From the NCBI GenBank assembly GCA_937858825.1, contig CALMAI010000025.1:1-53022 (forward strand): DNA of 53,022 nucleotides. Reading direction: 5' to 3'. The first letter of the stretch is position 1. Every line of letters starts with the position of its first letter. Below the pieces are notes generated by a model. That model did no database searches, had not been told where the DNA came from, and was given only the letters and a program-made list of their open reading frames with translations. This stretch comes from an uncultured Candidatus Peregrinibacteria bacterium (lineage in GTDB: Bacteria; Patescibacteriota; Gracilibacteria; UBA1369). Made by a program: the position numbers and the translations under genes. Shown here one piece after another: positions 24,238-30,036 of this stretch.

Positions 24238-24296
24238 GACATTCTCTCTGTTTGCGGACACGCGGACAAAACCCAACCAATCCCCTCAGGAAAAAG

Positions 24297-24302
24297 AAGG
24301 AG
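24297..24302 (+). promoter_or_regulatory. Shine-Dalgarno site of gene A
   Basis: AAGGAG in a purine run, 3 nt before the ATG at 24306. The spacing is short, but the motif stands out in a window where almost no gene has one. It decides the start at 24306 over the upstream in-frame ATG at 24252. Confidence 0.6.
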
Positions 24303-24305
24303 AAT

Positions 24306-24704
24306 ATGGAACCCGTTAACATCGCAAAATTCTGGGCAATCGTCGATCCTTACAGCACTCACCTCTCAGATCACATCAACATCCTGTCCTTTCGGTTTTC
24401 TCAAACAAACCGTGGACATGTTCAGAACGTCGATCTACTCAGAAAGCATACTGCGCTGCGTTTAGTCTTCAGTGAGTTGAAGCAGGAGCCTTCGTCACAA
24501 GAAGCCACAAAGCTCTTTCCAGGAAAAACCCTGGACGAGCTGAAAAACAAGGTCAAAGAGCTCGAGAGCCTGATGAAAAGGGTGATGCACAGTTACAATC
24601 ATGGCTCAGTGGAGGTGAGCCTCTTCAGCGGCGCGCTGACCTGCCTTTCATGCATCACCGACGCCATAAACTCCATCAGCAGAAACGAACCCCAGTCCGA
24701 GTGA
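24306..24704 (+). CDS. Helical accessory protein A, unknown function
   Basis: A 132-aa soluble protein starting MEPVNIAKFWAIVDPY. It is predicted to be mostly helical, with a charged central helix (TLDELKNKVKELESLMKRVM) and a Cys-containing C-terminal part (SGALTCLSCITDAINS). I do not recognise a family. Codons are GC-richer than in the neighbouring host genes, and the gene carries a perfect -35 promoter and a Shine-Dalgarno site, unlike those neighbours. The 3' side has a 30-nt GC-rich hairpin nearly identical to the one after the helical genes at 27.7-28.7 kb. Horizontal acquisition is likely but unproven. Confidence 0.65.
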   Translation: MEPVNIAKFWAIVDPYSTHLSDHINILSFRFSQTNRGHVQNVDLLRKHTALRLVFSELKQEPSSQEATKLFPGKTLDELKNKVKELESLMKRVMHSYNHGSVEVSLFSGALTCLSCITDAINSISRNEPQSE

Positions 24705-24716
24705 ACCCAAACAGAC

Positions 24717-24746
24717 AGCGGGCCGCGACATCATGTCCGGCCCGCT
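24717..24746. repeat. GC-rich hairpin repeat, copy A
   Basis: Outer arms AGCGGGCCG / CGGCCCGCT enclose GACATCATGTC, itself a near palindrome. Copy B at 28683-28712 is the same apart from one base gained on one side and lost on the other, keeping the pairing. It lies 12 nt after the stop of gene A. It may terminate transcription, but there is no real T tract after it. Confidence 0.8.
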
Positions 24747-24758
24747 TCAACCTATCCT

Positions 24759-24786
24759 TTGATTTGAAAAAAAAACAAAGTATAAT
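24759..24786 (+). promoter_or_regulatory. Promoter of YbaY-like lipoprotein gene
   Basis: TTGATT (24759-24764), 16-nt spacer, perfect TATAAT (24781-24786). The start would be near 24793, downstream of the ATG at 24789, so the ATG at 24813 must be the real initiation codon. Confidence 0.8.
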
Positions 24787-24812
24787 AGATGAAATCTTTA
24801 ACTCTCTTAAAC

Positions 24813-25235
24813 ATGAAAAGAATCGCTTCACTTTTTGTCATTCTTTCGCTCTTCCTGAGTGGATGCAACATGTTTCAAACCGATTCCGAAAATATTGCAG
24901 AACAAGCAACTGTCAGTGGAACCGTAAACTATTTGACCCGCGAGGCACTCCCTGAAGGAGCAATCATAACCGTGACACTTGCAGACACCAGTCGTGCTGA
25001 CGCGCCTGCCACTACCATAGACGAAGTGATGATTCCCGCTGAAGGCAATCAGGTTCCAATCCCCTTTGAACTCACATACAATCCAACCCAGATTGATGAA
25101 CGATATACTTATACCGTACGTGCAAAGATAACACTTGATGATGAACTCATAAAAACCAGCACACAGGCATATCCAGTTATTACCAGAGATAACCCAACCG
25201 ACAATATTGTCATTATGGTTGAGAACGTTCAGTAG
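24813..25235 (+). CDS. YbaY/YscW-like lipoprotein
   Basis: A 140-aa lipoprotein beginning MKRIASLFVILSLFLSGC, lipobox LSGC with the lipidated Cys at residue 18. The mature part, with VSGTVNYLTREALPEGAIITVTL and then FELTYNPTQIDERYTYTVRAKI, matches the YbaY/YscW beta-sandwich family of small envelope lipoproteins, some of which assist secretin or outer-surface assembly. The role here is not known. The start at 24813 is fixed by the promoter position. It has its own promoter and terminator, and lies between the accessory helical gene A and a large lipoprotein. Confidence 0.8.
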   Translation: MKRIASLFVILSLFLSGCNMFQTDSENIAEQATVSGTVNYLTREALPEGAIITVTLADTSRADAPATTIDEVMIPAEGNQVPIPFELTYNPTQIDERYTYTVRAKITLDDELIKTSTQAYPVITRDNPTDNIVIMVENVQ

Positions 25236-25253
25236 AAACAAGACACTGATCTT

Positions 25254-25281
25254 AGCCCGGCTCCCAAAGCTGGGCTTTTTT
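25254..25281 (+). terminator. Rho-independent terminator
   Basis: AGCCCGGCT / AGCTGGGCT (9-bp stem with one G-U pair) around a CCCAA loop, followed by six T. It lies 18 nt after the lipoprotein stop. Confidence 0.9.
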
Positions 25282-25329
25282 CATATTCCTTCTAAAAATC
25301 GGCTTCATTAAAATATCATCAATATATAC

Positions 25330-25358
25330 TTGCATTTATGTCAAGAATGAAGCATAAT
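25330..25358 (+). promoter_or_regulatory. Promoter of Kazal-META lipoprotein gene
   Basis: TTGCAT (25330-25335), 17-nt spacer, CATAAT (25353-25358), followed by an AT-rich leader of about 45 nt. Confidence 0.6.
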
Positions 25359-25407
25359 ATATAGATATAAATTATTTTATTATCTCATTTTTTAAACCAA
25401 AACAAAA

Positions 25408-26937
25408 ATGAACAAAAAAATGTTTACCCTTTTAATAGGGCTTACTACTCTTTTTGTGGTTGCGGGATGCCAACAACAGCCAACCGCTCCAACACAGGAA
25501 GAGAGCACCGTTAGCGACGATTCCATGATGGAGGAGGACGACTCCAAAATGGAGGAGGACGACTCTATGATGGAGGAGGACGACTCTATGATGGAAGAAG
25601 AGGATGAATCTATGGAGGAGGACGATTCCACCATTGCTTGTATTGATGAAAGTAAAGTTGATCCAAACGGGATCTGCACATTGGAGTACGCTCCAGTATG
25701 CGGATGTGACGGTAAAACTTATGGTAACAAATGCCAGGCTACTGCTGCCGGTGTAACATCATTTACCGAAGGTGAATGTGGAACTGAAGGAATCATGATG
25801 GAAGCGACTGATGTCATGGAAGACGCCATAAACACTATGGAAGAAGGAACCACAACCATGACTCGCAGCGCAGCACCTGTTGCCGGAATAATGCGTGGCG
25901 CGGCCCCAGCCAACTCTCCATTCTTAAAAGGAACCACCTGGCGATGGGTGAACAAGTCACGATCAGGAAGTGAAACTGTAGCTCCTGAAAACTCTTATCA
26001 GTTCATCCTCTCATTCTCAGATGATGGAAGCTTTTCAAGCAGCACTGACTGTAACAATTTGATGGGATCATACACCTCTGATGGATCAGGAATCAGCTTC
26101 TCACAAATCGCATCAACTCGTAAATTCTGCGAAGGATCTCTTGATGAGCTTTACGGTGCAGCACTTGCAGAAGCAAAAACTTTCACCATCCGTGAAGGAG
26201 AACTTACTTTCACTCTTCAAAACGAAAACGGTGAAAGTACTGGAAACATGTTCTTCCAACAAACCGATCCACAACTCAAGAAAAACTCATGGAAGTGGAT
26301 CGAAACGACCAATAATGATGGATCAATAACCAGCAGCGACAAGAACGAAATGTTTGTTCTCAACTTTAATGAGGAAGGTAACATTTCAAGCTCAACCGAC
26401 TGTAATCAGATCATCGGATCATATGAAGTAGGAGCTCCAGGTCAACTCAGCTTTGGACCATTGGCTTCAACCCGTATGGCATGTCCTGGGGAAACCATGG
26501 AAGAAGCATACTCAGCCGCACTTCAAAAAGTAGCGTCATACAACCTTGAAAACGAAAAACTCACATTCAAACTCAGCGACGGTGGAAGCATGGTCTTCTC
26601 AAACATACTTGCTGACGCCTCATGGCAATGGGTTCGCACAAACATGAATGATGGAAGTTCTGCCCGTCCGGCAAGTCCAGAGTCATTTGTCGTTACATTT
26701 AGCATGGATGGAGATATTTCCACCACCACTGATTGTAACGACGGTAAAGGAACCTACAGTACCAACCTTCATAAGCTTACATTCAGCCCAATTGCTACAA
26801 CCCGTAAAGCTTGTGAACCAAAGAGCGAAGAACAAAACTACCTTCGACTCCTTCAGAACGTTACTTCTTACGATGTACGAGGAAACACATTGATCCTCTA
26901 CACCAATGAAGGAAACATGCAGTTCACCAAAGCCTAG
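25408..26937 (+). CDS. Lipoprotein with acidic repeats, Kazal domain and three META domains
   Basis: A 509-aa envelope lipoprotein. Lipobox VVAGC places the lipidated Cys at residue 21. Residues about 36-72 are an acidic repeat of SMMEEDD units. A Kazal-type inhibitor domain follows (about 77-123) with six cysteines and the hallmark APVCGCDGKTYGNKCQA. After a Met/Thr/Ala-rich linker come three META (HslJ-like) domains of roughly 105-115 residues each, at about 173-288, 292-395 and 402-508. Each repeats a TW/SW-W strand start, an S/T-TDCN element and a TR-x-x-C element whose two cysteines may pair. Kazal domains inhibit serine proteases; META domains occur in heat-shock and antibiotic-response envelope proteins. 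A protective or anti-protease role at the cell surface is an inference. Confidence 0.88.
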   Translation: MNKKMFTLLIGLTTLFVVAGCQQQPTAPTQEESTVSDDSMMEEDDSKMEEDDSMMEEDDSMMEEEDESMEEDDSTIACIDESKVDPNGICTLEYAPVCGCDGKTYGNKCQATAAGVTSFTEGECGTEGIMMEATDVMEDAINTMEEGTTTMTRSAAPVAGIMRGAAPANSPFLKGTTWRWVNKSRSGSETVAPENSYQFILSFSDDGSFSSSTDCNNLMGSYTSDGSGISFSQIASTRKFCEGSLDELYGAALAEAKTFTIREGELTFTLQNENGESTGNMFFQQTDPQLKKNSWKWIETTNNDGSITSSDKNEMFVLNFNEEGNISSSTDCNQIIGSYEVGAPGQLSFGPLASTRMACPGETMEEAYSAALQKVASYNLENEKLTFKLSDGGSMVFSNILADASWQWVRTNMNDGSSARPASPESFVVTFSMDGDISTTTDCNDGKGTYSTNLHKLTFSPIATTRKACEPKSEEQNYLRLLQNVTSYDVRGNTLILYTNEGNMQFTKA

Positions 26938-26958
26938 ACTTAACTGACGTATCTTATC

Positions 26959-26998
26959 AGGTCGCCCATGAAATCAACCTCATGGGCGACCTTTCTCT
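26959..26998 (+). terminator. Rho-independent terminator
   Basis: A 13-bp perfect stem AGGTCGCCCATGA / TCATGGGCGACCT (26959-26971 and 26980-26992) with an 8-nt loop and a TTTCTCT tail. Confidence 0.9.
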
Positions 26999-27006
26999 AC
27001 CAGACA

Positions 27007-27628
27007 ATGAACAAGAAAAGCATCTTACAAAAAGCTATCGCCCTGCTTGCCTGGACCGCGGTCATTCTTCAGTTCTACCTTATTATCGTAAATCGAAAGA
27101 TGTCGATCCCCTGGACCATCCTCCAGTTTTTTAGCTTTTTTACCATTCTCACCAACATCCTTACCGCCACCTGTTTCACCTTTTTGGCTTCAAAAAAGAA
27201 CACCCGACTCAAAAAACTCTTTTCCAAGCCACAGACCATTAACCGCCATCACTGTTTACATTCTCATTGTTGGAGCAGTCTACAATCTCATCCTCCGCGC
27301 GCTATGGGAGCCACAGGGACTTCAACTTATCGTTGATGAGCTCCTCCATTCCATTGTTCCTGTTCTGGCAATCCTCTACTGGTTTACATTCGCGCCCAAA
27401 AAAGGACTTCATTGGAAAGATGCTTTCAGCTGGCTCCTCTACCCTCTTATCTACATTGTCTTCATTTTTACTCGTGGAGCATTTATGGATGTCTACCCTT
27501 ATCCATTTATAGACGTTTCCACCATTGGATATCCACAGGCATTCACCAATGCCGGAGTTCTCGTGATTATTTTCTGGATCCTCTCCCTCTTGTTCATTGC
27601 CACCGCGAAGGCATTGACAAAAAAGTGA
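27007..27628 (+). pseudogene. Pr6Pr-like membrane protein, frameshifted
   Basis: A six-helix membrane protein related to the Pr6Pr family, split by a single-base shift. From ATG at 27007 the first frame gives three helices (ILQKAIALLAWTAVILQFYL, then FFSFFTILTNILTATCFTF). After residue 78 it would run into junk. Removing one T from ATT at 27238-27240 restores TITAITVYILIVGAVYNLIL and the family-like PQGLQLIVDELLHSIVPV, RGAFMDVYPYPFIDVS and a final helix ending at TGA 27626-27628. The rest of the frame is clean, so this is either a recent mutation or an assembly error. The last codons overlap the promoter of the next gene. Confidence 0.8.
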
Positions 27629-27686: not shown

Positions 27687-28223
27687 TTGTCAGATTTAAG
27701 ATGGTTGCCTTTTATGGCCGATCCTCTTAACTGGCAGATATACTTTCTGCTTGCGTTGAACACATCACACAGCTCTCCCGAAAGGAAAATTTCAATGTCG
27801 ATAGATGACGCGTCTTCTCAATTGATCTGGCAGCTCTCCCATGAGAATCTCTGCTTTGCTACCAACCATGCCCTGGCTTTGAGGGCCCAGGGCCCCACTT
27901 CCAACGGCAACACCCAAAATGTAATGAAGTTCCTGAAAAACGCGACCGACCTTTATGAAAGGCTGGTCAAACTGAGTACGCAGGTAGTGATTCTTTATCA
28001 ACGGGCAAAGGATCAGGGGCAACATCCCATCACTCACGACGACTGGAAGCAGGTCAACGAACCCGTCGTCGAAATCAGTGGAGCTATTCAGCTCCTGGAG
28101 GATGTCATACTCGAGAATTCACCACAAAACACGCTTCTTGAAGCGATAATTCGCTTCATCAACAATTACAAAGAGCACATTGAACAACTGAAAACCTATC
28201 AACCTCAGCACACCATCCACTAA
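27687..28223 (+). CDS. Helical accessory protein B1, unknown function
   Basis: A 178-aa protein from TTG 27687, or 143 aa from ATG 27795. The core from MSIDDASSQLIWQLSHENL is predicted helical, with TQNVMKFLKNATDLYERL in the middle and a C-terminal HIEQLKTYQP. It resembles the next gene's product over TQNIVSLLKTAVEMV, a central Trp and HIDYLRDSL, so the two look like tandem paralogues. Codon use is GC-richer than in host genes nearby. It forms an operon with B2 (13-nt gap). I know no family for it. Confidence 0.6.
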   Translation: MSDLRWLPFMADPLNWQIYFLLALNTSHSSPERKISMSIDDASSQLIWQLSHENLCFATNHALALRAQGPTSNGNTQNVMKFLKNATDLYERLVKLSTQVVILYQRAKDQGQHPITHDDWKQVNEPVVEISGAIQLLEDVILENSPQNTLLEAIIRFINNYKEHIEQLKTYQPQHTIH

Positions 28224-28236: not shown

Positions 28237-28665
28237 ATGTCGCAAACCCAGGATCGACAAAACATTTGGATTAGGAGCCGGAACGAACTCCAAAGTCTCG
28301 ACGAACACTTAACCTCGCTCTGCGTCATCGCTCACCACCATGGTGAAAGCAATGAGGAGGCAATTCTCTTATCTGTAAGAGAGACGCAGAACATCGTCAG
28401 CTTACTCAAAACAGCTGTCGAGATGGTCAGCCATGCCGAAACACAACAGACAGGCCTGATCGTCGAAAAAACATGGAGCAGCATCCTAAACCTTAGCAAA
28501 GAGGTTCAGGCCAGCCTGGCCAAAATCCATAAACTCTTAAGAGACGGTTCTTCACTTCGCACTCTTCTTCAGGGGGCAAAGCAGCAGCTGGAGCACTTCA
28601 ACATCCACATAGACTATCTAAGGGATTCGTTAAGCGCCCCAACCAAGCAACCCCCGGCTGCGTGA
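28237..28665 (+). CDS. Helical accessory protein B2, paralogue of B1
   Basis: A 142-aa soluble helical protein beginning MSQTQDRQNIWIRSRNELQS. Long amphipathic helices cover almost all of it, the first bearing a His cluster (IAHHHGESNEEA), then TQNIVSLLKTAVEMVSHAE and a C-terminal LEHFNIHIDYLRDSLSAP. Length and the order of conserved positions match B1, which suggests duplication. It ends 17 nt before hairpin copy B. Four-helix proteins of this kind can act in regulation, histidine relay or as scaffolds, but nothing in the sequence decides between these. Confidence 0.6.
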   Translation: MSQTQDRQNIWIRSRNELQSLDEHLTSLCVIAHHHGESNEEAILLSVRETQNIVSLLKTAVEMVSHAETQQTGLIVEKTWSSILNLSKEVQASLAKIHKLLRDGSSLRTLLQGAKQQLEHFNIHIDYLRDSLSAPTKQPPAA

Positions 28666-28682: not shown

Positions 28683-28712
28683 AGCGGGCCCGACATCATG
28701 TCGCGGCCCGCT
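28683..28712. repeat. GC-rich hairpin repeat, copy B
   Basis: Arms AGCGGGCC / GGCCCGCT around CGACATCATGTCG. It matches copy A (24717-24746) apart from a compensating one-base shift, and lies after the last gene of its locus in the same way. Confidence 0.8.
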
Positions 28713-28863
28713 TCAGGCTACAACAATCCAGACACCAATCTACGTATTCCTTTAAATTAAGGGATAAAATAGGAAGGTCTTAATCCCCTTCGCCATGAAA
28801 AAATTTTTCACCCTTACAGGAGTCATCAGCACTCACATTTTTCCTTTACATCACTTTCTTTCG

Positions 28864-29531
28864 CCACTTACGGAGCGTGCTCCAGCCACAGCGGTGTCAG
28901 CTGTTCAGCGCGTCGTCCGTGCTCTTGGAAACCCAGCTGGACACGCTATCAATTGGGCCATTGGCGCGAATCCCTTTCAGAACTGCGATTGCCTGGGAAT
29001 GGCCGCACGATTGCAGTCGCATGACGAATTCTACCACTGTCCCGCCTGCTCCCAGAAACTCGCGAACGGTTTCTCGCGCAGCGGCGAGGCTGGATGGTGG
29101 ATAGTTAACTTCCCACTTCAGATTGTAAGGATCTTCGTCATCAACTGGCCGTATGACGAGAGTTCCAGCCCCCCCAAAGACACAAGGCCCTTCGAGCCGC
29201 AGAGGTTCACTCGTAGAGCTGGTTCTCTTGAGATGTCTTGCAAGGTCGAAGTGGGTCAATACATCCAGAATAGACACATCCAAACACAGCTCATCTACTT
29301 CTGGATCCTCAGTCCACCCAGGCGCCACGTCGCACGCCGGAGCCATGCAACCATCATCGTGCAGGTGTTCGAGAAATGAGGTTAGGTGTCCGTCCTCCAA
29401 TGCACAGTCAAGCGCGGCATTAGGCCTCGTTGTGGCATCTGGCAGTTTCTTCATCCGGCAACGATTACAGACTAGGCAAACAGCCTAGCTGTTCACTGAA
29501 CATTCGTCAAGCTCTTGCGCTTCGCAAGTGG
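28864..29531. mobile_element. 668-bp GC-rich insert with imperfect terminal inverted repeats
   Basis: The ends are CCACTTACGGAGCG (28864-28877) and, on the opposite strand, CCACTTGCGAAGCG (29531-29518), 12 of 14 matching. The segment is visibly GC-richer than its flanks, holds one reverse-strand open frame, and interrupts an SLH gene. Removing it joins the two SLH frames in phase. No transposase is seen, so it would need help in trans. No clear target duplication is visible; TCG and TCC at the borders are the best candidates. Confidence 0.45.
28897..29454 (-). CDS. Cargo protein of the insert, unknown function
   Basis: A 185-aa reading frame filling the insert, beginning MKKLPDATTRPNAALDC. 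It is acidic, with several Cys in the first 60 residues, a beta-rich middle (GPCVFGGAGTLVIRPVDDED), YNLKWEVNYPP and a helical C-terminus. Amino-acid use looks protein-like, and the forward-strand alternative is interrupted, so I favour this strand. No Shine-Dalgarno or clear promoter is seen. A hairpin CTAGGC / GCCTAG (29472-29488) lies just upstream. It is not a transposase or recombinase by any motif I can see. Confidence 0.45.
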   Translation of the reverse strand: MKKLPDATTRPNAALDCALEDGHLTSFLEHLHDDGCMAPACDVAPGWTEDPEVDELCLDVSILDVLTHFDLARHLKRTSSTSEPLRLEGPCVFGGAGTLVIRPVDDEDPYNLKWEVNYPPSSLAAARETVREFLGAGGTVVEFVMRLQSCGHSQAIAVLKGIRANGPIDSVSSWVSKSTDDALNS

Positions 29532-30036
29532 TCCGACGGCAGTGTCATTTGCGTAGATGGATGGCGCAATTCCAGTGTCGGCTACAGCTCCATGGTCAAA
29601 TGCCAGGGCTACTCTATACCCTCTACTCCCGAACCAGTATTTAAAACAGAACCAACCCCTGTAGCCTCTAGGCCCTTCACCGATGTAACCATTTCATACA
29701 AATATGAACAGGCCGTTGAATATATGAAAGACAGCGGCATTGTAGAAGGATACAGCGATGGAACCTTTAAACCCTTCAACAAAATCAACCGGGCCGAATT
29801 CATCAAAATCCTCATGGAATACAAGTTCGGTAACGACTCCATGGCCAATCGAGATTGCTTCACAGATGTCCACAGCGAGCCGACGGCGCAACTATCCCCG
29901 AAGTCAGCGGCGAATGGTACAAGAAATACCTTAGTTACGCGGATTCACTTGGACTTAGACCTGACGAATGGAAAAGCATGGACTACAACATCACTCGCGG
30001 CGAAATGGCCGAGGCGGTCTGGAGGTTGAAATAAAA

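What the first reader, a model, noticed from the sequence alone, without database searches (positions are those of the whole stretch)
28864..29531. 668-bp GC-rich insert with imperfect 14-bp terminal inverted repeats in an SLH gene
Seen: ends match in 12 of 14 inverted positions, the segment differs in composition, and removing it joins two parts of the SLH gene in frame. It has one reverse reading frame of 185 aa and no visible transposase. Inference: a non-autonomous cargo element. The chance of an in-frame join is one in three, so that point alone is weak.
Basis: partly seen in the sequence, partly recalled or inferred. Interest (0 to 1): 0.62.

Follow-up and report, generated by a model that had tools for sequence, protein, structure and literature searches.

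The report
Foreign gene inside a dead SLH gene
A roughly 610-bp piece of GC-rich DNA carrying one orphan gene on the opposite strand sits inside a decaying surface-protein gene of a Peregrinibacteria genome; the 'inverted ends' that suggested a mobile element are a coincidence and are not kept in the sister species.

Summary
The 14-bp ends exist as described (12/14, 28864-28877 / 29518-29531), but they do not bound the insert. The left arm lies inside the host SLH gene, next to and overlapping the codons of a cysteine motif (GACSxHxGVxCxAG...DGSVICxDGW) found in other Peregrinibacteria proteins. The motif is split in the window: its first half is at about 28869-28910, its second half starts at about 29526-29532. 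Removing about 609-612 bp (roughly 28911-29522) restores the motif (54-60 bits). Nothing supports mobility: one copy per genome, no transposase, no inverted ends at the true junctions, no target duplication beyond chance. What stands is an old insertion of GC-rich DNA (54% against 45%) that split the SLH gene, now a pseudogene in both species. Its 185-aa reverse ORF looks like a real gene (8 synonymous, 4 nonsynonymous codon changes; no indels) but has no relative in Pfam, NCBIfam, PHROGs, PADLOC, PDB, phage, plasmid or sampled genome collections. Real, but of modest interest.

The parts
28795..28910 (+). 5' part of the interrupted SLH-family pseudogene: signal-peptide-like start (ATG 28795), a frame change, then ...SFATYGACSSHSGVSCSA in the frame of 28863; contains the left 'TIR' arm
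   Evidence: translation of the three frames; left-half motif profile has its only significant hit in six frames of the whole window here, E 7e-4
28911..29522 (.). the actual insertion, about 609-612 bp; junctions uncertain by roughly 10 bp on each side
   Evidence: excision here restores the split motif to 54-60 bits against 36 without; GC 54.4% against 44.8%; same segment without indels in the sister
28897..29454 (-). 185-aa orphan ORF carried by the insert; its last few residues (about ALNS) and its stop codon come from the antisense strand of the SLH gene
   Evidence: 8 synonymous and 4 nonsynonymous codon changes against the sister, dN/dS about 0.155; P 0.019 against matched random substitutions, open length p 0.001 against shuffles
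29523..30035 (+). 3' part of the SLH-family pseudogene: RKWSDGSVICVDGWRNSSVGY then an SLH domain, with a frame change near 29880-29890
   Evidence: Pfam SLH 2.2e-13; frames; most of the domain is deleted in the sister
28864..28877 (+). left arm of the claimed inverted repeat (chance match, host coding sequence)
   Evidence: absent in sister
29518..29531 (-). right arm of the claimed inverted repeat, straddling the right junction (chance match)

Best explanation
About 610 bp of foreign, GC-rich DNA was inserted once into the Cys-motif loop of an SLH-family secreted-protein gene in the common ancestor of two Peregrinibacteria species, most likely by illegitimate (end-joining or microhomology) recombination of a DNA fragment. 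The SLH gene died and has been decaying separately in each lineage. The fragment's single reverse-strand ORF, probably cut at its 3' end and ending on a stop codon supplied by the antisense SLH sequence, looks kept by selection as a 185-aa orphan protein. Shown: the split motif, the shared insert, the decay, the substitution pattern. Inferred: the single event, the foreign source and the route of entry. The protein's biochemical role was not resolved.
For: Homologues in six other Peregrinibacteria genomes and a paralogue in the own genome (G000:C23) match the motif profile uninterrupted, with a 6-7 residue loop in those read. The window has both halves, one on each side of the insert, and excising about 609-612 bp rebuilds ATYGACSSHSGVSCSALRKWSDGSVICVDGWRNSSVGY. 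The sister has the insert at the same site, 612 bp aligned without gaps, with flanks decayed by its own deletions. The right SLH remnant shows 4 of 4 changes nonsynonymous, against 4 of 12 in the ORF. GC is a local extreme. Single copy.
Against: No genome with the uninterrupted gene at this exact locus was found; an adjacent marker gene is limited to this genus among 31 genomes, so the empty site is inferred from homologues. Only two genomes and 12 codon changes support selection on the ORF. No donor was found, so 'foreign' rests on composition.
Confidence: 0.72

Rival explanations
1. A non-autonomous transposon or cargo element moved by a transposase acting in trans.
For: 12/14 inverted match; a 9-bp direct repeat AGCTGTTCA at 28899-28907 and 29487-29495; the DNA strand at the right end folds better than shuffles, z -3.26.
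Against: Left arm lies outside the junction and is absent from the sister; such inverted pairs are common by chance, and a direct repeat of 9 bp or more arises in about 3% of random placements; excision at the 9-bp repeat restores the motif poorly, 41 bits against 54; no other copy in the genome.
Confidence: 0.08
2. The insertion happened, but the segment is non-functional filler DNA: the 185-aa ORF is a chance open frame in GC-rich DNA.
For: No homologue in any library or collection; no ribosome-binding site evident before the ATG (by eye) and no promoter above chance; AlphaFold confidence only 41.
Against: Substitution pattern (P 0.019) and open length (p 0.001) favour coding; no indels in 612 bp while the flanks lost pieces.
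Confidence: 0.17
3. A gene cassette of integron type inserted by an integrase.
For: Size and single-ORF layout resemble a cassette (sequence).
Against: An attC site would have to follow the ORF's 3' end, but the ORF runs straight into the SLH gene, leaving no room.
Confidence: 0.03

Closest known systems
SLH-domain secreted proteins of Peregrinibacteria with an N-terminal GACSxHxGVxCxAG-loop-DGSVICxDGW motif (SLH: PF00395)
   Same: both halves of the motif and one SLH domain are present at the locus
   Different: here the gene is split by about 610 bp and carries further frame changes, so it is a pseudogene
MITEs / non-autonomous TIR elements
   Same: short DNA segment, no transposase
   Different: no inverted ends at the true junctions, no convincing target duplication, single copy, claimed ends not conserved in the sister
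ORFan genes gained by horizontal transfer
   Same: composition differs from the genome, no detectable relatives, appears under selection
   Different: donor unknown; entry disrupted a gene, and its stop codon appears borrowed from that gene

Membership tests
Non-autonomous transposon (MITE-like, TIR-bounded) | terminal inverted repeats at the element's ends | tested here: not met
   the left arm is inside the host gene and is missing in the sister
Non-autonomous transposon (MITE-like, TIR-bounded) | target-site duplication | tested here: inconclusive
   9-bp direct repeat, but chance about 3% and poor motif restoration; the 4-bp GCGC at the better junction is chance level
Non-autonomous transposon (MITE-like, TIR-bounded) | several copies in the genome or other sites in relatives | tested here: not met
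   one copy in G000, one at the same site in G001, none in the other relatives and phylum genomes sampled
SLH-domain protein | SLH domain profile match | tested here: met
   PF00395 2.2e-13
SLH-domain protein | intact reading frame | tested here: not met
   split by the insert, plus frame changes at both ends
Integron gene cassette | attC site downstream of the ORF | tested here: not met
   no space between the ORF stop and the host gene; judged from the layout, no attC model was run
Protein-coding gene (185-aa ORF) | purifying selection | tested here: met
   dN/dS about 0.155, P 0.019, from two genomes only

The most novel reading that the evidence does not exclude
The 185-aa protein is a new functional family that entered the lineage on a small mobile unit without inverted repeats (for example one whose ends are hairpins, as the folded right end might suggest), leaving only this one copy.
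Probability: 0.06. Interest if true: 0.5.

Novelty: new member of a known kind. Interest (0 to 1): 0.2.

Why it matters
It is a clean example of a small foreign fragment breaking a surface-protein gene in a reduced-genome bacterium while its own gene seems to be kept. It also warns that inverted-repeat calls made without homologues can misplace an insertion by tens of bases: here a conserved protein motif gave the true boundaries.

Tried and rejected
TIR element: rejected. 9-bp direct repeat as target duplication: not favoured. Death-domain resemblance of residues 126-167 to NF-kB p105 (2dbf, E 0.17): chance level, not pursued. AlphaFold model: mean pLDDT 41, not used for a fold search. Viral scan hit L049: a 17-residue coincidence in a long, unrelated ORF. 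Scans of viral contigs, genome contigs, plasmids and phages: no relative but the sister. Rfam: nothing credible.

Full report
Setting. The window is contig C25 of a 1.32-Mb genome. Its nearest held relative is a same-genus MAG (G001); G001's contig C74 matches, by length and content, JAGQLQ010000029.1, 'Candidatus Peregrinibacteria bacterium isolate HKST-UBA20'.

Observation. The claimed arms read CCACTTACGGAGCG and CCACTTGCGAAGCG (12/14). Inverted 14-mer pairs at least this good, 300-1000 bp apart, occur 159 times in the window, and 2.25% of random placements with +-50 bp freedom yield one. The segment is truly GC-rich for this window (3 of 1049 windows as high).

True boundaries. Translating all frames shows ...LSFATYGACSSHSGVSCSA up to 28910 in the frame of 28863, and ...LRKWSDGSVICVDGWRNSSVGY from about 29520. 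In other Peregrinibacteria SLH and related proteins, and in an intact paralogue in the same genome (G000:C23), these are two halves of one motif, GACSxHxGVxCxAG-loop-DGSVICxDGW, with 6-7 residues between C and DGSV in the sequences read. A profile of the left half alone has its only significant hit in six frames of the whole window at about 28869-28910. The left arm of the claimed repeat lies on these and the preceding codons, so it is host sequence. Scoring simulated excisions, removal of about 609-612 bp with junctions within roughly 28903-28922 and 29513-29535 gives 54-60 bits. The 9-bp-repeat excision gives 41 bits.

Sister locus. In G001 the insert is present at the same place, 612 bp aligned with no gap and 14 substitutions. 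The left flank there has lost the left arm, and most of the SLH domain is deleted. Only the right arm of the claimed repeat is found there. The SLH gene is a pseudogene in both genomes: frame changes in the window, deletions in the sister. The lower divergence of this stretch (2-6%) than of ileS and beyond (7-8%) is shared by its neighbours and is not special to the insert.

The ORF. Between the two genomes the 185-aa frame has 8 synonymous and 4 nonsynonymous codon changes (dN/dS about 0.155), the fewest nonsynonymous of all six frames. Matched random substitutions give so few in 1.9% of trials, and the open length exceeds shuffles at p 0.001. The adjacent SLH remnant has 4 of 4 changes nonsynonymous. 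This favours a real gene, on thin data. Its last residues and stop codon lie in the antisense of the SLH motif, so its original 3' end was probably cut off on entry (inference). No relative was found in Pfam (even at E 10), NCBIfam, PHROGs, PADLOC, the PDB, viral contigs, 84,980 species genomes (close relatives only), 380 genomes of the phylum, plasmids or phages. A structure prediction from two sequences was not confident.

Mechanism. The simplest account is a single old insertion of a foreign fragment by illegitimate recombination. The best junction shares only GCGC, which is chance level. No transposase, second copy, inverted end or room for an attC site supports a mobile element. Not tested: transcription, translation, and the donor.

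Noticed in passing
24717-24746 and 28683-28712: A 30-bp near-perfect palindrome (AGCGGGCC..GACATCATGTC..GGCCCGCT) occurs exactly twice in this genome and twice in the sister at matching places, each just after a short orphan ORF; absent from two other genera tested.
   Followed up: partly
24252-24704, 27687-28223, 28237-28665: Three short, probably helical ORFs (by eye) with faint mutual similarity (15-21%); for the last, no relative outside the genus among 31 genomes.
   Followed up: partly
24756-27577: This 2.8-kb stretch, with a Kazal plus META-domain gene (25408-26937), is absent from the sister contig.
   Followed up: no
29470-29530: Three short palindromes in a row (CTAGGC/GCCTAG, TGTTCA/TGAACA, CTTGCG/CGCAAG) at the right end of the insert, upstream of the reverse ORF; the DNA strand folds with z -3.26, the RNA only -1.6. 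Could be an operator or chance.
   Followed up: partly
L041-L047 (other Peregrinibacteria genomes): The GACSxHxGVxCxAG..DGSVICxDGW motif, in several cases next to SLH domains, has no Pfam family.
   Followed up: partly
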